From a virus: a DNA stretch of 64,000 nt. The stretch spans positions 1 through 64,000 of the IMG/VR virus record IMGVR_UViG_3300005528_000046; one strand, given 5' to 3'. Shown in pieces: positions 879 through 58,804 of the stretch (position 1 is the first letter of the stretch; each line of letters opens with the position of its first letter). The translations under genes and the position numbers were made by a program. Under the pieces are notes generated by a model, which was not told the DNA's origin, did no database searches, and saw only the letters and a program-made list of their open reading frames with translations.

Positions 879-1379
879 TTAAAATAAAAAGTCGTATATT
901 GTTTCGACAGTTATACCATATTTCTGTGCAATAGCTTCATCTTGAATGTCTACACTTTTCAAATCACCATCTTCTTCAAATACAGCTGTAAAATTAATTT
1001 TATCCGAGCCGGCTTTCAATTCACAATCAAATTCAATATCTGATACTAAACGAGTTTGATCATATGCTCCGGTTGGGTCGTTTTGACTTTCAATATCTTG
1101 TTTGATATCATCAATGATATCTTGGAATGTATTTTTATCGGCTAATTGAGAACCTTGAAATGTCATGCTAACGATACCAGATATATTAGTATCATAATCA
1201 GCTCTGTTTATCATGATCTTTAAATTTTTAGGATCTACCATTAAGTTACCAGTACGTGGATCTCGATTAGCTCCGCTGTCAAATCCTAATTTATTTTCTA
1301 GATCACTTAAATCAGCTTCGTTAAGATTCTTAGTTTTGAATCTACGCATATTTTCTGCTAAGATATTTTTTTTCATCAT
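879..1379 (-). CDS. Unknown protein with ILAENMRRF leader
   Basis: This is a 166-residue acidic protein of unknown function. Its first 20 residues (MMKKNILAENMRRFKTKN) closely match the start of the next gene upstream (1408-1728), while the remaining sequences are unrelated. The leader contains I-L-A-E, like the IAE at the gp21 cleavage site in T4 internal-protein leaders. The body looks like a small soluble alpha/beta fold with no recognisable catalytic motif. Two ATG codons in tandem could both serve as start, and no clear Shine-Dalgarno site precedes them. The gene lies 28 bases after its paralogous-leader neighbour and before gp32, probably in one transcript. Packaging into the head is inference. 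Confidence 0.7.
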   Translation of the reverse strand: MMKKNILAENMRRFKTKNLNEADLSDLENKLGFDSGANRDPRTGNLMVDPKNLKIMINRADYDTNISGIVSMTFQGSQLADKNTFQDIIDDIKQDIESQNDPTGAYDQTRLVSDIEFDCELKAGSDKINFTAVFEEDGDLKSVDIQDEAIAQKYGITVETIYDFLF

Positions 1380-1407: not shown

Positions 1408-1728
1408 TCAAGATTCACTGTACAGCGAATCCTGATTAGACATATCTTGTTCAATATGATCAGCAAGTTTTTGTATGGTTTGTATAATTTGTTTGAATTC
1501 TTTTAAATAAAAATTTTTATTGTATTCATCCGTAAAATCATCAATAACATCTGCCGGAGTATTTGGTATACAAGTTTCTAAAGCATTTAAAATATGATCG
1601 TATATTTCAATCTCTTTTTGATTTAATGGACCAGTTGCATTGGCTACATATGTATCAAGCTCATTGATGTTTTTAGTACCAAATCGATGCATATTTTCAG
1701 CTAATAAATCTTTTAATTTTTTCATCAT
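1408..1728 (-). CDS. Unknown small protein with LLAENMHRF leader
   Basis: A 106-residue protein of unknown function. It starts MMKKLKDLLAENMHRFGTKN, a leader shared with the gene at 879-1379, and then becomes a mostly helical acidic domain (about residues 30-106). The leader is lysine-rich and amphipathic and carries L-A-E at residues 9-11, resembling T4 capsid-targeting sequences cut after (L/I)xE. A copy of the TATTTATA box lies 13 bases before the start and overlaps the stop codon of the preceding gene, and AAGGAA precedes the ATG. Function beyond possible head targeting cannot be given. Confidence 0.7.
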   Translation of the reverse strand: MMKKLKDLLAENMHRFGTKNINELDTYVANATGPLNQKEIEIYDHILNALETCIPNTPADVIDDFTDEYNKNFYLKEFKQIIQTIQKLADHIEQDMSNQDSLYSES

Positions 1729-36069: not shown

Positions 36070-36696
36070 TTATATCCTACATTTTCCATCTTCACAGAGT
36101 ATAGATGTAATTGCATCATGTACTCTTGCGTATTTATTTGTCGTTGTTTTATTTACTGATTCATTCATTCGTGTTGGTCGCATAAAAGCTCCATGTGTCG
36201 ATGGATTTGATACAAAGTCCCAACAAATTAATTCAAAATCTTCTTGTACTTCTACAGTGCCTTCATTACGTAGTTCTTTTACAGATCCCAAACCACGTGA
36301 TGATATTCCCAAAGTAATTCCTGCACGAAATAATTCTTTAAGGATTTTTCCCGAAGGTGTATCTAATACTTGAACCGTTCCAAGTAAATCATCACCATTC
36401 CACCATATTTTTAAAACGTTATGTGATACATTGTTCAAGTTAACTACAGATGATTCTGGATGATCTAACTCGCCTAATGCTCTATGCTGATCAATATATT
36501 CACGCTGATAACGTTGACATTCTCTTTGCAATATATGTTTAGGATATACTCGTCCGTTTTGGTTTTTAGCTCCTGCTCTTTGTAAAACTCCTTGCACTAC
36601 AAAACCACCCGGTATTCCATATGCAGAACCATTTGATTCCGTTAAAGAACCAACAGGTCGAAATGGCATATATTCTACTATAAGTTGTTTTGACAT
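36070..36696 (-). CDS. 21: Prohead core protease gp21
   Basis: A 208-residue serine protease (T4 gp21 is 212). The catalytic histidine is H79 in ALGELDHPES, and the serine lies in GISSRGLGSV (S132 or S133). The segments NQNGRVYPKHIL and ILKELFRAGITLG are typical of this fold. It is cleaved free and digests scaffold, core and capsid N-termini during maturation. It follows the 236-residue gene by one base, with AGGGGAATAAT as ribosome-binding site. The family call is strong; which serine acts is inferred from family spacing. Confidence 0.9.
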   Translation of the reverse strand: MSKQLIVEYMPFRPVGSLTESNGSAYGIPGGFVVQGVLQRAGAKNQNGRVYPKHILQRECQRYQREYIDQHRALGELDHPESSVVNLNNVSHNVLKIWWNGDDLLGTVQVLDTPSGKILKELFRAGITLGISSRGLGSVKELRNEGTVEVQEDFELICWDFVSNPSTHGAFMRPTRMNESVNKTTTNKYARVHDAITSILCEDGKCRI

Positions 36697-49255: not shown

Positions 49256-49264
49256 TATAAATAT
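49256..49264 (-). promoter_or_regulatory. TATTTATA box
   Basis: TGATATTTATATTTAAAAG. The TGA is the stop of the SbcD-SbcC gene. The box lies 19 bases before the structural gene ATG at 49236. Confidence 0.5.
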
Positions 49265-52200
49265 CAGTTATGGGAGATTTGGCTGAATCCGTTTATTTTG
49301 TTTACTTCAATTAAGTTGTCTACCATATCACGCATTGTATCTACGTGAGATATGATAATTGAAAAATCAAATTTAGTTCTAAAATAATCAAATAGATTTA
49401 CTACTGCAGAAATATGTTCTGCATCTAATGAACCCCATCCTTCATCAATTGCAATGAAATTTGGACGTGGTAATGCTGATACATTGATAAGTGCAATCCG
49501 AATTGCTAAAGATGAAATAAATCGTTCCATACCGCTTGTTAATTCTAATGGCCAAAAATTATCTTCATCATATATAATATATCCGTTAATATTTTTACCA
49601 TCACTTTGAAGAACCATGTTAAAATCAACAACTTGATTTAATACGTTATTGATTTCAGTTTCTATTTTAGGCATAGCTTTTGAAATTAATTCATACGGTA
49701 CGCCATCTCGTTTAACGGATTCTAAATAATATTCATATGCTTTGTATTCTGTTTCTAATTTTCGATATGAATCTAGTTGTGATATTGCAGTAGATTTATT
49801 AGTTTTAGCAACTTCAATAGCCCCATGTTTTTTACGAATTGCTTCTGTAATTTCTTTGATTAATGTAGTGCACGATTCTATTTTTTCTTTGCATTCTAAA
49901 ATTTCAGCATCAACCGTTTTGTTATGTTTAATTGCAGATTCATTTGAACGAAATGATTCTTGTCGTTCTAAACATGTTTCTAATTCGGATTCTCGTGTTT
50001 GCAATTCACTTTCTAGTAATTCTAATTGCAATTCTTTTACTTTTAAAGTATTCAATGAGTCCGTAATAGTTGTTTTTATTTGATTTAACTCATTGTATTG
50101 AGTTTCATATGTTTTTAATTCAGCATATTGCGTTTGATTAATTTCATATCGTTGCATCAATTCTTCTAATACTTTTCTATCTTGATCAATTGTATGTTGC
50201 GCCGACATTGCATCTTGTACAAAAACGTTAGATGTACAGTATTTACATTGTGGGTCATATTCATGTGATTCAAGATGCTTAATTTTTTCTTCTTTGGCAT
50301 CAATCAATCCTGTTTGTGTTTTAATTGCATCACGTAATTCTGTAAATTCTGTTTGAAGTTTTTGTAATGTTTCTACGTGTTGCAACAACTGTGTTTCATT
50401 GTAATTGTTTCGTATGTTTTGTTTTGCTTGTGATATATTTGTTTTTATGAGTTGTATGCCAGCAGATGCTGTATCAATATCTGATAGCAACGTTTCAATT
50501 TGTTTTGTTAAATCAGTTTCTTGTGTTTCTAACGCAGCAATATCCGGACCTTCATATGTTGTTGGAAGTTTTGTTTCAATTAAAGAAACAATTGTATTTT
50601 GTAATGCGTTTCGCTGTTCTTGAAAATCATCTTCCTGTGTTTCTAAATCTCGAATACTGTCTTGATTGTTAGTTATAACGGCATCGGCTTGTATAATAAT
50701 TTCAGCAAAATCTGTTTTCTTATATTCTTTAAGTTTACCAGCTGTTTCTTTGATTTCTTCATTTGCTAGTTGATACAATTGTTCAAACACCGTAATATCT
50801 AAAAATTGTGAAAGCAAATCTTTACGTTCTCTCTGAGACTTTTCTATAAAATTATTGTTATCTGCTTGAAGTGAAAATGCAGTTAAAATAAAATCATCAT
50901 ATGTACCTAAATAACGACGTATTGATTTATTTGTATCACTTCGTTCTTCACCATTTAAATTTTCTGTGTCTGTATAAAAGTCTACTAATACTTTAACATG
51001 TCCGTTTTTTTGTTTGATTCCCGTACGTTCAATTGTATACGTTGTACCATTCATTTCAAATGTAAACTTGCCTCGAAACGTAGATTTTTTGTTATTTAAA
51101 ACTTCATTAGCTTTTCCAGTTTTACTACATTTATCAAAAATAGTATATGTTATTGCATCTAATAATGAAGATTTACCTGATGTATTTGCAGCAAATAGGC
51201 CGCATACATCTTTCATATTTTCAAAATTAATCACGTTGCCTTCACCATATGAAAACATGTTATCAAATTCAAATTGAATAGGATGCCAAGTCATGTGACG
51301 TACTGATTCTACTGCCGGTAGTTTTGAATTTATTGTGCGATTAATATAACGAATTGCATCTGTTTCTTCCGAAGTAGCTTGTGGAAAATTTACTGCAATA
51401 TAATCTGTTATCAATGTATTTTGATATTCAACGTCTCGTACATTACCAATAGTAAATGATGATGTTGTTTCAGTTGCAGACATTGCAGAACTACGTTGAA
51501 TTGTAATATCCTGAACATCATACTTTTTACGTATCGTTGCAATTAGCTTTTTCATGTCAGCCGCTGAAGTACCGTTAAATTTAATTCTAACGCGAGGTTT
51601 TTCTGGCATTCGATGTGGTGCTTTAACAACGGTAGTTCCTTCTACTTCAAGTGTTACATAACCATAATCATTTTGTATTTCTACAAATTTTGCCTCTCTA
51701 CATGGAAGATCCCAAACTAAAATTCCATGGTCTAATGCTTCGCCATGATTTTGTTGTATCAATGAACCAGGATATGCAATTGTGCCAGCATCATTTAAAA
51801 ACTGTGCCGGTTTGTGTATGTCTCCTAGCAATGTTATGTCATGTCCTTCAAACAAATCAACGCCAACATGTTCATTAGATATCTGATATCCTATATCCGT
51901 TTTAGCAGAATTTACAGCTCCATGATGCAATGCTATTTTATATGCTGCTTGAAACTGATCTGCTTTAATATATTCACTTGGCGGAACATCAACTGCCATG
52001 TGATTGAATACAATACCAGCACATTCAAACAATCCGTTATCTTTAATGAAATGAATGTTTGGATTTTTAATAACATTGATAATAGGACTAATTGCATCGA
52101 TTCTATGCATATTGTTTAGATTCATGTCATGATTTCCTAGTATTACTATGGTAGGAATCATAAATCCATCAAAAAACTCAACAAGCATTTCAATTAGTTC

Positions 52201-52407
52201 CGGAGACATATCTAGTTTGCTATGAACAATATCTCCCGTAACTACTGCAATACTGGATCTTGTACTGTTACATGCAATATGATCAAATAAATTTTGAAAC
52301 ACTTCGCGATATTCTTTATGACGTTTTAAAGTACGTATATGTACATCGGATATATGAAATATCTTATCTATATAATCTAAACCTAGATCTAGTTGTTTTA
52401 TATCCAT
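49264..52407 (-). CDS. Fused SbcD-SbcC (gp47-gp46 type) recombination nuclease
   Basis: A 1047-residue single chain of two classic partners. Residues 1-365 are a calcineurin-like phosphoesterase of Mre11/SbcD type: HISDVHIR (D21, H23), VTGDIVHSK (D59), LGNHD (91-94), LHHGA and LLGDIHKP. From about 371 the chain is Rad50/SbcC-like: Walker A GLFAANTSGKSS (K412, first Gly position occupied by Ala), a long coiled coil with zinc hook CKYC near residue 720, signature LTSGMERFISSLA and Walker B IAIDEGWGSLDAEH. The complex cuts and resects DNA ends for recombination. T4 encodes these as genes 47 and 46. It overlaps the primase gene by 10 bases. Confidence 0.9.
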   Translation of the reverse strand: MDIKQLDLGLDYIDKIFHISDVHIRTLKRHKEYREVFQNLFDHIACNSTRSSIAVVTGDIVHSKLDMSPELIEMLVEFFDGFMIPTIVILGNHDMNLNNMHRIDAISPIINVIKNPNIHFIKDNGLFECAGIVFNHMAVDVPPSEYIKADQFQAAYKIALHHGAVNSAKTDIGYQISNEHVGVDLFEGHDITLLGDIHKPAQFLNDAGTIAYPGSLIQQNHGEALDHGILVWDLPCREAKFVEIQNDYGYVTLEVEGTTVVKAPHRMPEKPRVRIKFNGTSAADMKKLIATIRKKYDVQDITIQRSSAMSATETTSSFTIGNVRDVEYQNTLITDYIAVNFPQATSEETDAIRYINRTINSKLPAVESVRHMTWHPIQFEFDNMFSYGEGNVINFENMKDVCGLFAANTSGKSSLLDAITYTIFDKCSKTGKANEVLNNKKSTFRGKFTFEMNGTTYTIERTGIKQKNGHVKVLVDFYTDTENLNGEERSDTNKSIRRYLGTYDDFILTAFSLQADNNNFIEKSQRERKDLLSQFLDITVFEQLYQLANEEIKETAGKLKEYKKTDFAEIIIQADAVITNNQDSIRDLETQEDDFQEQRNALQNTIVSLIETKLPTTYEGPDIAALETQETDLTKQIETLLSDIDTASAGIQLIKTNISQAKQNIRNNYNETQLLQHVETLQKLQTEFTELRDAIKTQTGLIDAKEEKIKHLESHEYDPQCKYCTSNVFVQDAMSAQHTIDQDRKVLEELMQRYEINQTQYAELKTYETQYNELNQIKTTITDSLNTLKVKELQLELLESELQTRESELETCLERQESFRSNESAIKHNKTVDAEILECKEKIESCTTLIKEITEAIRKKHGAIEVAKTNKSTAISQLDSYRKLETEYKAYEYYLESVKRDGVPYELISKAMPKIETEINNVLNQVVDFNMVLQSDGKNINGYIIYDEDNFWPLELTSGMERFISSLAIRIALINVSALPRPNFIAIDEGWGSLDAEHISAVVNLFDYFRTKFDFSIIISHVDTMRDMVDNLIEVNKINGFSQISHN

Positions 52408-54035: not shown

Positions 54036-55004
54036 TTACATATAATTCCATATGTATTTTTTAGTTACTATTTCTAATTTTTTAGTTTTTCGATTATACT
54101 TCCAAAATTTTGCAGTAAATGTTGACGGCCGATTCCCTTTACGTATGGTATCAATCATAAATTCAACTAGATCTCTAATCATTTTTATATTAGCTTTATC
54201 ATATCGTTTAGCTTGTTTTTCTAACGAAGTTAAAAGTTCCATTTCGTCTTTACGAAATTCCGACTTTAACCAATTGGCAGCACCTTCTTCATCATCATTA
54301 AATACTCCGCTAAAATTATCGAAATATTCTGCAGGATTTTTTGTAAATACATCATATAAATGTTTTGTATACCATTGTATCTTATCATGTACATTATTTA
54401 AATAAAGTGCAAATGCAATATCCATTTTAGTTACATTTTTACTAGGTAATGTAGAAACATGTATATGATCATAATGATCGGCTGCTTGCCATATATAAGA
54501 TTTTTTATTTCCACTTTCCCATAAAACATAACCCAATTTTTTAAGTTCTGCTACTAGTAAATTTCCTAATACTGTAAATGTTTTTCTATCATCCTGATAT
54601 GTTATGCCGTTTAATCTACTAATATCAACAGCATTTCCGGTATAATGTCTACTTATATTTCCAGATTCAGTATATTTATCATGCCCCGTTCTAGCAAATG
54701 TAATTTCAACATTTCCAATATTTGCTGCCTTTACGGCTTTTTTTAAATCTTGAAACAAATTTAAATCAATTTGATCAGCCTTTGCTTTATTACTTAAAGT
54801 CAATCGGCCGGGTTTATTTATTGGATTTTTTATAGGTATATCATCTGTTTTCTTGATATTTGTATCAGTATCTGTCTTTTTTACATCAGTATCAGTTTTT
54901 GGTTTTATAACTGGTTCAGTTTTTACTATAACATCAGTTTTTTTCTTTTTTGCAAAAATAGAATCTAAATTTGGATCTTGTTCGTATAATATTGAAGTAT
55001 TCAT
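54036..55004 (-). CDS. M15-type zinc peptidase with short leader
   Basis: A 322-residue protein. After a low-complexity Lys/Thr/Asp segment (18-60), the domain at about 75-190 has SRHYTGNAVDIS (H120, D127) and HYDHIHVS (H180, H182), the SxHxxGxAxD...HxH pattern of M15 D-Ala-D-Ala/L-Ala-D-Glu peptidases with zinc ligands H120, D127 and H182. The C-terminal 130 residues are helical. It probably cuts peptidoglycan peptides. There is no signal peptide; instead it begins MNTSILYEQDPNLD, a short stretch with L-Y-E. It may be the tail-borne or head-packaged lytic enzyme, or an endolysin. The choice between these is open. Confidence 0.7.
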   Translation of the reverse strand: MNTSILYEQDPNLDSIFAKKKKTDVIVKTEPVIKPKTDTDVKKTDTDTNIKKTDDIPIKNPINKPGRLTLSNKAKADQIDLNLFQDLKKAVKAANIGNVEITFARTGHDKYTESGNISRHYTGNAVDISRLNGITYQDDRKTFTVLGNLLVAELKKLGYVLWESGNKKSYIWQAADHYDHIHVSTLPSKNVTKMDIAFALYLNNVHDKIQWYTKHLYDVFTKNPAEYFDNFSGVFNDDEEGAANWLKSEFRKDEMELLTSLEKQAKRYDKANIKMIRDLVEFMIDTIRKGNRPSTFTAKFWKYNRKTKKLEIVTKKYIWNYM

Positions 55005-55014
55005 GATAATATAT

Positions 55015-56574
55015 CTATTGAATTTTTTGATTTTTATGTTTTATAATCCACTGATGTGTATCTTGTGTAATCTGATCACGATCTACTTTATTTATATCTA
55101 TATCACGATTTCCAGATTTATATGCAACAATTACATTAATTAATTCTATTAATTCTTGCATATCGTTATCCCATTTGCCGGATGGTGTTTGATTGATAAA
55201 TTTATCTATAGGATAGTCTTGTTTTCTAGATTCAAAAAATTCTAAATTTGTTGTGAACATTTCGATCATATCTACTTGTAAACTTCGTATAACATTAGTA
55301 TCACTATCTTCATAAACCGGACCATCATATGATTTATAATCAACTTGTATTCCGTTTACATATTTATTTTTTGGTTTATTATTTTCATCCCATAAAATTC
55401 CGTTAAATGGTTTATTATTTTTAAAATAACCTTCAAAATATTCGTCAGCTAATACTCGATTTAATTTTCCTTGTGATAATTGTCCATTTCGAATAATACC
55501 TGTAAATTGATGTGTTGGTAATCCATCTGGTGTTTCTTGTCGATTACCAGTTTTTATATCTAATTGTAATGGTAAATTATTTGCATTTCCATTATTTAAA
55601 TCTATAATATTTATAGCATAATATCCAATCTGATCAGATCCATATTTAAATTTTGAACGTTCATTTGTAGACTTAAATGACCCATCATATATAATAATCG
55701 TCGTCGGATCTGTAAGTATTAATTTACCATCTAACGGTATATTATTTTTAGTATCAAAATTTCCATAAAATTGAATTTTAGATATAGTTCGACTCCATAT
55801 ATTTTTTGATAATTGGACTGTTAATGGATCTGATTCTGATACCAATATTGTATCTGGAATTTTTAATAATTCCTCTGGAGTTTGTAAATCAGCTGTTGAT
55901 ATTTTTTTATTAATTGTTTTTAATTGTACTAACCACTCATATGCTTTTTTATATCTCGTTGCATCTATAAAAGTTTTATCGATAATTGATGTAACTGGTT
56001 TTAAATTAATCAAATCTATAATTCTATTGGCTGATAGATGTGGAGTATTATTAGCTAATGGTAAAGCACCGCTAGATACAGTAACTTCTGGATATATCGA
56101 TTGAATTCCACCACTAGGTAATCCTAATGCAACATTGTATTGTCCAGATTTACTTTTAGTTACACTAGATTTATATATCCACATTAATTCTTCAATATAA
56201 TTTTTAGGTAATATCCAATAATTATATAAATAATTTTTTTTTGAATCACGTTGATCTGCAGAACGAATGAATAAATAATTACCGTTTAAAAAACGTTGCA
56301 ATGTTTGATTTTGATTGATTCGTTGAGCAATTGCCTTTTCTACACTTTGTTTACTAGCTAGTTCTCCATTTCTTCTTTTAGCAATTGCTTTTAATTGAAA
56401 TCCAGCTACAGCGCCTGCATCTTGAGCTTCTGCTATATCAGCTGATCGCAATCCGGTTTTAATAATTACCGTAATAACTTGCGTACTTGTTTTTGGTACA
56501 GCAGCTGTTGGTTGCAGATTTGATTGCTCTAATAATAATTTTCGTATAATTTGTTCTATCATGATGCGTTTCAT
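55015..56574 (-). CDS. Unknown protein with MORN-like segments
   Basis: A 519-residue protein. The first ATG at 56574 (MKRIMIEQIIRKLLLEQSNL) or the second at 56562 (MIEQIIRKLLLEQ) may be used. The N-terminus is amphipathic and contains L-L-E. Residues about 265-400 have YDGSF and FEGYFKNNKPFNGILWDENN units with Y/F-x-G spacing, reminiscent of MORN repeats but few in number. No catalytic residues are obvious. It sits between the kinase-like and peptidase genes with a near-copy of the TATTTATA box just upstream. Function unknown; the leader and neighbours suggest a virion-internal protein. Confidence 0.6.
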   Translation of the reverse strand: MKRIMIEQIIRKLLLEQSNLQPTAAVPKTSTQVITVIIKTGLRSADIAEAQDAGAVAGFQLKAIAKRRNGELASKQSVEKAIAQRINQNQTLQRFLNGNYLFIRSADQRDSKKNYLYNYWILPKNYIEELMWIYKSSVTKSKSGQYNVALGLPSGGIQSIYPEVTVSSGALPLANNTPHLSANRIIDLINLKPVTSIIDKTFIDATRYKKAYEWLVQLKTINKKISTADLQTPEELLKIPDTILVSESDPLTVQLSKNIWSRTISKIQFYGNFDTKNNIPLDGKLILTDPTTIIIYDGSFKSTNERSKFKYGSDQIGYYAINIIDLNNGNANNLPLQLDIKTGNRQETPDGLPTHQFTGIIRNGQLSQGKLNRVLADEYFEGYFKNNKPFNGILWDENNKPKNKYVNGIQVDYKSYDGPVYEDSDTNVIRSLQVDMIEMFTTNLEFFESRKQDYPIDKFINQTPSGKWDNDMQELIELINVIVAYKSGNRDIDINKVDRDQITQDTHQWIIKHKNQKIQ

Positions 56575-56579
56575 ATATT

Positions 56580-56588
56580 AATAAATAT
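56580..56588 (-). promoter_or_regulatory. Near-copy of TATTTATA box
   Basis: GGATATTTATTAATATATG. It differs from the consensus in the last base and lies 5 bases from ATG 56574 or 17 bases from ATG 56562. The second spacing is more usual for the box and favours the shorter product. Confidence 0.35.
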
Positions 56589-56591
56589 CCG

Positions 56592-57128
56592 TTACCAATC
56601 AACCATTACCAAATTTCCGTTCCAACTCATTACATTATCAGATCGAAAATCTAAATCTAAATCAAATTCTGGTATATCTAATTTTTCAATGTCTGTTTTT
56701 AGAGCATTTAAAAAATTATCAACCACCAGATCAATTGTATCTGTTTCAGCAACAAAATCAAATATTGAAACTTCACCACCATTTTCTCTAGCAAATACAG
56801 CATAATCTTGCATAAAATTATCAATGCTTGTTTTGATACGTGTGGATAATTCTGAAGCATTTGCCATAATATACATGTTTTTACCGTCAACATAATATAC
56901 CGGAATAAACGTTGTGAACATGTCACTGCGATTAACTATGCGTTTAGCAACTTCATATTCATCACGTTCTTTAGTAATTTTAAAAACTTTATCTTCACCG
57001 TCGATTTCATATACACGACCATTATCACCCGCACCGATTAATCGAAATGCATTGTTTTGTATTTTTTTCAAACAACGTTGAATATCAGAATCTGATATCT
57101 CTCGTAGTATTTGTTTTAATCGTATCAT
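56592..57128 (-). CDS. Minimal protein kinase-like protein
   Basis: A 178-residue protein with the marks of a kinase catalytic core: Gly-rich loop IGAGDNGRVY (32-40), ATP-lysine K50 in KVFKIT, a catalytic-loop-like DFRSDN with D160 and N165 (the spacing of HRDLxxxN, although the His position is D158), and VMVDW with D177 as the metal-binding Asp. The chain ends one residue later, so the activation segment and C-terminal helices are missing. It may be a very small kinase or a pseudo-kinase. It begins MIRLKQILREISDSD, a leader with L-R-E. It overlaps the preceding gene by four bases (ATGA). Confidence 0.7.
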   Translation of the reverse strand: MIRLKQILREISDSDIQRCLKKIQNNAFRLIGAGDNGRVYEIDGEDKVFKITKERDEYEVAKRIVNRSDMFTTFIPVYYVDGKNMYIMANASELSTRIKTSIDNFMQDYAVFARENGGEVSIFDFVAETDTIDLVVDNFLNALKTDIEKLDIPEFDLDLDFRSDNVMSWNGNLVMVDW

Positions 57129-58804
57129 GTTTGAGATCCATTAATATTTGTTGATAAAACGGTTGCTGGTGTAATATTTTTATCTAAATCAATTCTAATT
57201 AAAAAATTCGTATCAACATCATTTCGTTTTCTAATAGGCTGTGCTAGTTTTCCTACTGCTAGTAATTGACCTGCATCATTATATAATCCTATAGTTGTAA
57301 TATATGGTGCAAATGAACTACCCGTAACAAATGAATGATATGTTACATCATTATCTTTAGTAAGAGTTGGATTCAATGATAAATTAAAATCACCGGCATC
57401 TAATTTTGTTACAACCCCTAATTCATAGCTTGTTAGTGTGCTTTTATAACTAGCAGTGTATGTTTGTTGCAATATGTCGTGAAATCTAGGATCTAGAGTT
57501 GATACTACTACTAGGCCTTGTTTTGAAAATACATTTCCAACATGATTTGTTTGTAAAAGTCTGTATTCTCCAGATGCTCCAAATTCTGACGGGTTATATA
57601 AATTTGAAATTTCTTGGGTTGATAAAGCTCGATTAAAAATTCTAATTTCATCTATAGATCCAGAGAACGTTTCCCCCGATATTCCAGTACCGCCTATCAT
57701 TAATGGATGATCATTATCAATTCTAGCTGACACAGCTAACGGATTATATGTATTAGTTAGCCAAGTAGCAGATGCTGAAGTTACAAATGTACTATTAATA
57801 TATAATTCTACGTTACTGCCTGTCTTCTGAAATAAAATATGTTGATATGAATCTATACTTACAAAAATACCTAAATTAGTAGTTGCTTGTACAGTTTGAG
57901 TGCCGCCTTTTATAGAACAAATTATATCATTATTACCATTTACTTCAATTTTAAATGGATATTGTGTAATATTGCTACCGCTAGCTTTTGCAATTATTAA
58001 TCTATTAGGTCCTGTAAATGGTATTGATAAATCGGTATCGGAAGATGCAAATAATGAGATTGCATAATCAGAATCTCTGGAATAATCTCCATCTATTGTA
58101 GTTTTAATATATCCAGGATTTGAAAAATTTGCTGCAGTACCGAGCGGAACAAAAGTATTGCCACTTGGAGTATTATATGAAACTCGTATTCCTGGAATAA
58201 AAGTTACATTACGTGAGTCAAAATTACAACGAGATGCATCAAAACATTCATTAAATCCTTCATAAAATTTAACACCTGTTACTATAGATTCGGTTGGAAA
58301 TGTACTACTATACAAATTACCATAACGATCTGAATGTATTCTTAATTTAGTTAAACCAAATCCATCAAGAAATGCAGATCCAGTAAACGTAAATGATCCT
58401 GGTTTTATTCCTTCACCAATTTTTTTGTAAGGAAATGATAATACGGATGCTGATTGATATAAATACTTTTTAGTTCGATTTAAATCCGTAGGACCTAATG
58501 TATTATATGGTTGCGTTCTATATTTGTAAAATAAATGATTAATAGAATCATATATTACGGTTTGCAAACTGTCATCAACATTTTTTGCATCATTGTATGT
58601 TAATTCAGTTTCTAATGCTGGTAATATATCCGAATATATTGCATTTAACGGTAAACAACTAGATGTAGCACTACCAGATAATACAGTCCAAGATTTATAT
58701 GTTTGAAACGGATTGATAGTTACATCTGAATTATCAATTTTTTTAAACACACTAGGATATATTCCTTGATACGTTTCTTCTGAAGATATTTTTGTGTCTG
58801 CCAT
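57125..58804 (-). CDS. Tail structural protein with LamG-like domain
   Basis: A 559-residue virion protein. Residues about 230-410 form a concanavalin/LamG-like sandwich (DYAISLFASSDTDLSIPFTG, LIIAKASG, LMIGGTGISGETFSGSIDEI, then RIFNRALSTQEISNLYN). The last 55 residues (SFAPYITTIGLYNDAGQLLA, VGKLAQPIRKRND, FLIRIDLD) are homologous to the end of the next gene upstream (58864-60159), so the two share an attachment or assembly domain. It probably binds carbohydrate on the host surface. A stem-loop and a near-copy of the TATTTATA box precede it. Confidence 0.65.
   Translation of the reverse strand: MADTKISSEETYQGIYPSVFKKIDNSDVTINPFQTYKSWTVLSGSATSSCLPLNAIYSDILPALETELTYNDAKNVDDSLQTVIYDSINHLFYKYRTQPYNTLGPTDLNRTKKYLYQSASVLSFPYKKIGEGIKPGSFTFTGSAFLDGFGLTKLRIHSDRYGNLYSSTFPTESIVTGVKFYEGFNECFDASRCNFDSRNVTFIPGIRVSYNTPSGNTFVPLGTAANFSNPGYIKTTIDGDYSRDSDYAISLFASSDTDLSIPFTGPNRLIIAKASGSNITQYPFKIEVNGNNDIICSIKGGTQTVQATTNLGIFVSIDSYQHILFQKTGSNVELYINSTFVTSASATWLTNTYNPLAVSARIDNDHPLMIGGTGISGETFSGSIDEIRIFNRALSTQEISNLYNPSEFGASGEYRLLQTNHVGNVFSKQGLVVVSTLDPRFHDILQQTYTASYKSTLTSYELGVVTKLDAGDFNLSLNPTLTKDNDVTYHSFVTGSSFAPYITTIGLYNDAGQLLAVGKLAQPIRKRNDVDTNFLIRIDLDKNITPATVLSTNINGSQT

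What the first reader, a model, noticed from the sequence alone, without database searches (positions are those of the whole stretch)
56592..57128. A kinase-like protein that stops at the metal-binding Asp
The Gly loop (32-40), K50, the D160-N165 pair and D177 have kinase spacing, but the chain ends at W178, where normal kinases still have activation and substrate lobes. It is a very small kinase-like unit and the stop is followed at once by a promoter-like box, so it is not a frame error that I can see. It could be a working mini-kinase that phosphorylates host proteins, or a pseudo-kinase.
Basis: partly seen in the sequence, partly recalled or inferred. Interest (0 to 1): 0.7.

Follow-up and report, generated by a model that had tools for sequence, protein, structure and literature searches.

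The report
Phage half-kinase with head-packaging tag
A family of aquatic T4-like phages carries a tiny protein that is only the first half of a kinase, always cut off at the same metal-binding residue, and that starts with the kind of ten-residue label T4 uses to load proteins into its head for injection into bacteria, so it may be a host-modifying protein delivered with the DNA.

Summary
The 178-aa ORF (57128-56592) folds confidently as a protein-kinase-like domain (pLDDT 91, pTM 0.84). Its last two residues, D177-W178, superpose on the DFG Asp-Phe. The truncation is real and conserved: all 99 distinct homologue tails end [VI]DW, and a distant homologue in cultured Flavobacterium phage immuto ends IDV. 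No homologue has the rest of the C-lobe. K50, E57, D160, N165 and D177 are invariant in 39 of 39 non-redundant members; the immuto type lacks D160.

MIRLKQILRE|I has the length and register of the T4 capsid-targeting sequence MKTYQEFIAE|A (hydrophobic 4, 7, 8; Glu 10). The genome encodes a gp21-type prohead protease, and the same tag sits on unrelated proteins: 6 of 90 genes here and 10 of 197 in a sister genome, against 0.26 and 0.59 expected.

Best explanation: a half-kinase loaded into the prohead, clipped after E10 and injected. Whether it phosphorylates anything is open: OspG, another half-kinase, is active, but SteC cut shortly after its Mg-binding Asp is dead. New variant of known kinds; no bench evidence.

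The parts
56592..57128 (-). half-kinase gene, 178 aa plus stop
57099..57128 (-). codons 1-10, MIRLKQILRE: capsid-targeting-like propeptide, predicted cut after E10
   Evidence: L4, L8, E10 near-invariant; register as in T4 IPIII; enrichment. Cleavage is inferred
57009..57035 (-). Gly loop, residues 32-40 GAGDNGRVY
56979..56981 (-). K50, beta3 Lys
   Evidence: invariant
56958..56960 (-). E57, alphaC Glu
   Evidence: invariant; helix 55-64 in the model
56634..56651 (-). catalytic loop, residues 160-165 DFRSDN
   Evidence: D160 and N165 invariant in window type
56595..56600 (-). D177-W178, the DFG Asp and the residue after it, C-terminus of the protein
55015..56574 (-). next gene, 519 aa, MKRIMIEQIIRKLLLEQ: possible tagged internal protein, no known family
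54036..55004 (-). 322 aa, MNTSILYEQ: possible tagged protein; some relatives in the same cluster start MKLKDLLFE
36070..36696 (-). gp21-type prohead protease (Peptidase_S77), the presumed tag cutter
   Evidence: Pfam E 2.2e-32
1408..1728 (-). another gene with the tag in register, MKKLKDLLAEN

Best explanation
The gene encodes a half-kinase: kinase subdomains I to VII (N-lobe, hinge, alphaD/alphaE, catalytic loop and the Mg-binding Asp) and nothing after. Its first ten residues are a capsid-targeting propeptide. Proposed sequence: (1) the gene is made late, among tail and head genes (position shown, timing inferred); (2) the tag docks the protein into the prohead core (inferred from sequence); (3) the gp21-type protease clips after E10 (protease gene shown, cleavage inferred); (4) the mature protein of about 168 residues is packed with the DNA and ejected into the next cell (inferred from T4 internal proteins); (5) there it binds ATP-Mg through K50, E57, N165 and D177 (residues shown, binding inferred); (6) it works on or through a host partner that stands in for the missing C-lobe, by phosphotransfer in the D160-bearing members (least certain). 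Step likelihoods: kinase-like fold 0.95; genuine conserved truncation 0.98; packaging tag 0.75; nucleotide binding 0.75; catalysis 0.4.
For: Fold: two AlphaFold models, the better at pLDDT 91.1 and pTM 0.84; the PDB matches listed are kinase-like folds, with APH(2'') first and OspG second, VIA-align Z up to 9.0 ending at the DFG-Phe position. Conserved end: 99 of 99 tails [VI]DW, 17 of 17 immuto-type tails [IV]DV. Residues K50, E57, D160, N165, D177 39/39. Tag: L4, L8, E10 near-invariant; same register as T4 IPII/IPIII; 6/90, 10/197 and 3/93 genes against 0.26, 0.59 and 0.33 expected, 0/65 in control PaMx11; the tag stands on unrelated neighbours; S77 prohead protease present. Precedent for activity: OspG, subdomains I-VII only, is active and ubiquitin-stimulated (PMC3585378).
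Against: No virion proteomics or assay. SteC constructs ending at 375/377, shortly after its Mg-binding motif at 364, are inactive (PMC13395416). The immuto-type homologues lack the catalytic Asp, and R162 varies in the window type. The tag statistics use a simple longest-ORF gene caller. Tag enrichment was not clear in the Mel-JY01 stretch.
Confidence: 0.5

Rival explanations
1. Packaged pseudokinase: the domain binds ATP or only keeps the fold, transfers no phosphate, and acts after injection as a decoy or binding module, for example as an inhibitor of a host enzyme or defence factor.
For: Immuto-type homologues lack the catalytic Asp yet keep the tag and the end. SteC without the part beyond its DFG region is inactive. 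T4 IPI is a packaged inhibitor of a restriction enzyme (PMC9026906).
Against: D160 is invariant in 39 of 39 window-type members, which a pure scaffold would not need.
Confidence: 0.3
2. Active enzyme, or assembly factor, that works in the producing cell or on the prohead, not injected: the tag brings it to the core, where it modifies or binds head proteins during assembly.
For: Gene lies among structural genes; in T4 core proteins as well as internal proteins are protease substrates.
Against: In T4 the short tagged non-core proteins are mostly ejected proteins; nothing in these data points to a head substrate.
Confidence: 0.15
3. Decay product of a full kinase: the C-lobe was lost by a stop or frameshift and the remnant has no function.
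For: Full-length relatives by motif exist: a 283-aa APH-family protein with HLDFHTDNIM..VIDW and a 287-aa Bacillus phage kinase.
Against: Same end in every homologue, purifying codon pattern, and no downstream kinase-like sequence.
Confidence: 0.02
4. The N-terminal similarity is not a packaging tag but a common amphipathic start that serves something else, for example membrane binding or translation; the half-kinase is an ordinary cytoplasmic late protein.
For: The tag is short and defined by few positions; no cleavage has been shown.
Against: Exact ten-residue register, near-invariant E10, presence on many unrelated proteins, and a prohead protease in the same genomes.
Confidence: 0.2

Closest known systems
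OspG / NleH half-kinase effectors
   Same: Only kinase subdomains I-VII with all catalytic residues; delivered proteins; OspG is the second PDB match by Foldseek.
   Different: OspG homology to kinases ends at residue 160 and the protein continues; no sequence similarity found; delivered by a type III system into animal cells, activated by ubiquitin, which bacteria lack.
T4 internal head proteins IPI-III and Alt
   Same: Ten-residue N-terminal targeting sequence ending in Glu at position 10, gp21-type protease in the genome.
   Different: None of the T4 internal proteins is kinase-like; packaging and cleavage not shown here.
Flavobacterium phage immuto immuto26A_178 (QQO91857.1, hypothetical protein)
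   Same: Similar position shortly before a tagged gene and the primase, tag MISIYNILKE, Gly loop, Lys, alphaC Glu, Asn and terminal Asp kept, ends at DFG+1.
   Different: 146 aa, 26-27% identity to the window protein, catalytic Asp replaced by Ser (Arg in some relatives).
Short unnamed phage kinase-like proteins, e.g. PaMx11_73 (142 aa)
   Same: Kinase-like with SDLKPEN and LDYA motifs, very short after the Mg-binding Asp.
   Different: Continues for about 17 residues after the motif, no tag, unrelated phage.
APH family phosphotransferases (PF01636)
   Same: Catalytic loop and end motif, DFHTDNIM...IDW in a fecal phage relative; APH(2'') is the first PDB match.
   Different: APH proteins have a helical substrate domain after the motif; the window protein has none and gives no Pfam APH match.

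Membership tests
protein-kinase-like fold | N-lobe sheet with alphaC, hinge, catalytic loop and beta7-beta8 in order | tested here: met
   model pLDDT 91.1; listed PDB matches are kinase-like
protein-kinase-like fold | Lys, alphaC Glu, catalytic Asp, Asn and Mg-binding Asp | tested here: met
   K50, E57, D160, N165, D177 in 39/39 window-type members; immuto type lacks D160
canonical protein kinase (ePK) | activation segment, APE, alphaF and later C-lobe helices | tested here: not met
   chain ends at DFG+1 in every homologue
APH family PF01636 | profile match over the family cut-off | tested here: not met
   no Pfam APH match
APH family PF01636 | helical substrate-binding part after the Mg-binding Asp | tested here: not met
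   absent
OspG/NleH half-kinases | kinase subdomains I-VII only | tested here: met
   met in kind, not by descent
OspG/NleH half-kinases | sequence homology to OspG/NleH | tested here: inconclusive
   no sequence match in the PDB search; structural match only
T4-type internal head proteins | N-terminal propeptide with targeting residues 4 and 7 and processing residues 8 and 10 | tested here: met
   L4, I/L7, L8, E10 conserved
T4-type internal head proteins | gp21-type prohead protease in the same genome | tested here: met
   Peptidase_S77, E 2.2e-32; also in five of six sister records searched
T4-type internal head proteins | presence in the mature head, cleaved, and ejected | not testable with these tools
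   needs virion proteomics

The most novel reading that the evidence does not exclude
A phage-injected half-kinase: a conserved kinase unit ending at the DFG Asp plus one residue, packaged in the head by a T4-like tag together with up to about ten other tagged proteins, and active only when a bacterial partner supplies what the missing lobe would.
Probability: 0.25. Interest if true: 0.85.

Novelty: new variant of a known kind. Interest (0 to 1): 0.62.

Why it matters
If right, it gives a natural lower limit for a kinase unit that evolution has kept, adds a kinase-like protein to the short list of proteins that T4-like phages inject with their DNA, and turns an N-terminal tag into a way to read out the candidate injected set of a large group of uncultured aquatic phages. 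A cultured relative (immuto) makes it testable now.

Tried and rejected
Pfam, PHROGs and PDB sequence searches gave nothing credible for the protein: the S100-A9, myosin light chain and GH62 hits are weak and make no biological sense. The window protein had no hit in 50,697 phage records at E 1. A scan of 84,980 bacterial and archaeal genomes found no relative. Hit H9 (Erwinia phage tail protein) is a weak partial match and was dropped. Xylella phage Paz could not be fetched under the accession tried. The missing C-lobe being supplied by the neighbouring gene was rejected, because that neighbour differs between genomes. No report of a head-packaged phage kinase turned up in the paper searches, which cover open-access papers only. 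The Mel-JY01 stretch (50 kb) showed no clear tag enrichment, so the tag habit may not extend to all phages with a related terminase.

Full report
Observation. The ORF lies on the minus strand of the window, 57128 down to 56592, and reads MIRLKQILREISDSD...DLDFRSDNVMSWNGNLVMVDW-stop, 178 aa. The window is bases 1-64000 of a 93,322-base virus record with T4-like head and tail genes; the nearest named terminases are those of Microcystis phage Mel-JY01 (58.6%) and Flavobacterium phage immuto (57.3%).

The end is real. A scan of viral contigs gave 152 relatives, of which 80 were read: all stop at the same place. Wider scans bring 99 distinct tails, all [VI]DW, and 17 tails of a second, immuto-like type, all [IV]DV. 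Codon differences over ten relatives are 358/214/703 for positions 1/2/3. The next gene starts close behind the stop and is not the same gene in all genomes: a tagged 519-aa protein here, a T7 endonuclease I-like protein directly in L016, L020 and L175. So there is no room for a C-lobe behind the stop.

Fold. A first model from 40 close relatives reached pLDDT 78.7; a second from 41 more diverse rows, including three immuto-type sequences, reached 91.1 with pTM 0.84. Foldseek against the PDB lists kinase-like folds: APH(2'') first, OspG second, then APH(4), CK2, MPS1, RIO1, PRPK, SAICAR synthetase. E-values are modest (about 1e-3), as expected for half a domain. VIA-align gives Z up to 9.0 over about 117-137 residues, and the last aligned pair is W178 with the DFG-Phe position (MPS1 665, CDK2 146, CDK6 164; the DFG numbering of these kinases is from general knowledge). 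So D177 is the DFG Asp by structure as well as by spacing.

Residues. Over 39 non-redundant window-type members, K50, E57, D160, N165, D177 and W178 never vary; R162 is R, K, S or N. The catalytic loop and end resemble those of an APH-family protein from a fecal phage contig, HLDFHTDNIM...VIDW (hhalign E 3.8e-5 over 49 columns; Pfam APH 5.2e-12 for that protein). A 287-aa Bacillus phage kinase aligns collinearly up to the same point and then continues for about 105 residues. Descent from an APH-like or Ser/Thr kinase that lost its C-terminal part is an inference.

The cultured relative. In Flavobacterium phage immuto, immuto26A_178 (146 aa, hypothetical) is hit by the family profile at E 3e-7 in a set of about 130 ORFs. 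Part of that score comes from the tag, so homology rests also on the Gly loop (GEGDYGAVF), the kept Lys and Glu, the position and the shared end. Like the window gene it stands shortly before a tagged gene and the DnaG-like primase. It has SIKMDN where the window type has DFRSDN, hence no catalytic Asp.

The tag. Residues 1-10 are the least confidently modelled part of the protein yet strongly conserved: L4 39/39, L8 38/39, E10 38/39. In T4, the first ten residues of IPIII suffice for packaging; residues 4 and 7 matter for targeting, 8 and 10 for processing (PMC9026906). T4 IPII and IPIII begin MKTYQEFIAE|A. MIRLKQILRE|I has the same length and register. A gp21-type protease (Peptidase_S77, E 2.2e-32) is encoded at 36070-36696 and in five of six sister records searched. 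Counting genes with hydrophobic residues at 4, 7, 8 and Glu at 10: 6 of 90 in this record (0.26 expected from internal stretches of the same proteins), 10 of 197 in sister record G001 (0.59 expected), 3 of 93 in immuto (0.33 expected), none of 65 in the control PaMx11. In G001 the tagged starts include MIRLKQLLKE, MIRLKSLLFE, MIKLKSILNE, MIRLSNLLAE, MIRLKHILAE and MIRLKDLLKE on proteins of different lengths and bodies. Neighbours of the kinase in several contigs carry the tag on bodies that do not match the kinase. The gene caller was a simple longest-ORF rule, so counts are approximate.

Mechanism. The best reading is a packaged and injected half-kinase. Fold, end, residues, tag enrichment and protease gene are shown; late expression, packaging, cleavage, injection, ATP binding and activity are inferred. 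OspG is a precedent for an active half-kinase that is stimulated by a host partner (PMC3585378). SteC is a precedent against: constructs ending at residue 375 or 377, with the Mg-binding motif at 364, are inactive (PMC13395416). The loss of D160 in the immuto type fits a non-catalytic role in at least that branch. I put activity in the window type at about 0.4.

Novelty. Half-kinases are known, T4 internal proteins are known, and short phage kinase-like proteins exist in databases without names (PaMx11_73). The combination, and an end exactly at DFG+1 kept across more than a hundred variants, was not found in the sources searched. New variant of a known kind.

Noticed in passing
G001 (record behind L016) 94545-96314, 96638-97018, 97098-97667, 98116-98577, 122967-123470; G000 85885-87355: A set of proteins of unknown family share the ten-residue start MI(R/K)L(K/S)xxLxE with the half-kinase: a candidate list of internal, injected proteins of these phages.
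   Followed up: partly
window 879-1379, 1408-1728; G000 76011-77594, 86405-86824: Several otherwise different proteins start with a longer shared motif, (L/I)LAENMxRFxxKNL, beginning at the same L-x-A-E tag; function unknown, no PHROG or Pfam family.
   Followed up: no
window 58839, 40154, 15665, 11497 and others (minus strand); also just after the kinase stop, about 56570-56592: A motif TATATTTATAnTAAA lies upstream of many genes, 15 on the coding strand against 3 on the other; possible late promoter, inverted relative to the T4 late box TATAAATA.
   Followed up: partly
window 49264-52407 (minus): One 1047-aa ORF looks like a fusion of the two subunits of a T4 gp46/gp47 (SbcCD-like) nuclease: phosphoesterase-like start and ABC ATPase-like remainder, judged by eye from the translation.
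   Followed up: no
L285:5856-6284 (Pseudomonas phage PaMx11 gene 73): An unnamed 142-aa protein has SDLKPENFG...LVCLDYA and ends about 17 residues later: another near-minimal phage kinase-like protein.
   Followed up: partly
window 57125-58804 (minus): The gene just upstream overlaps the kinase start by four bases and carries a LamG/concanavalin-like domain (E 7e-14), so the two may be translationally coupled.
   Followed up: no
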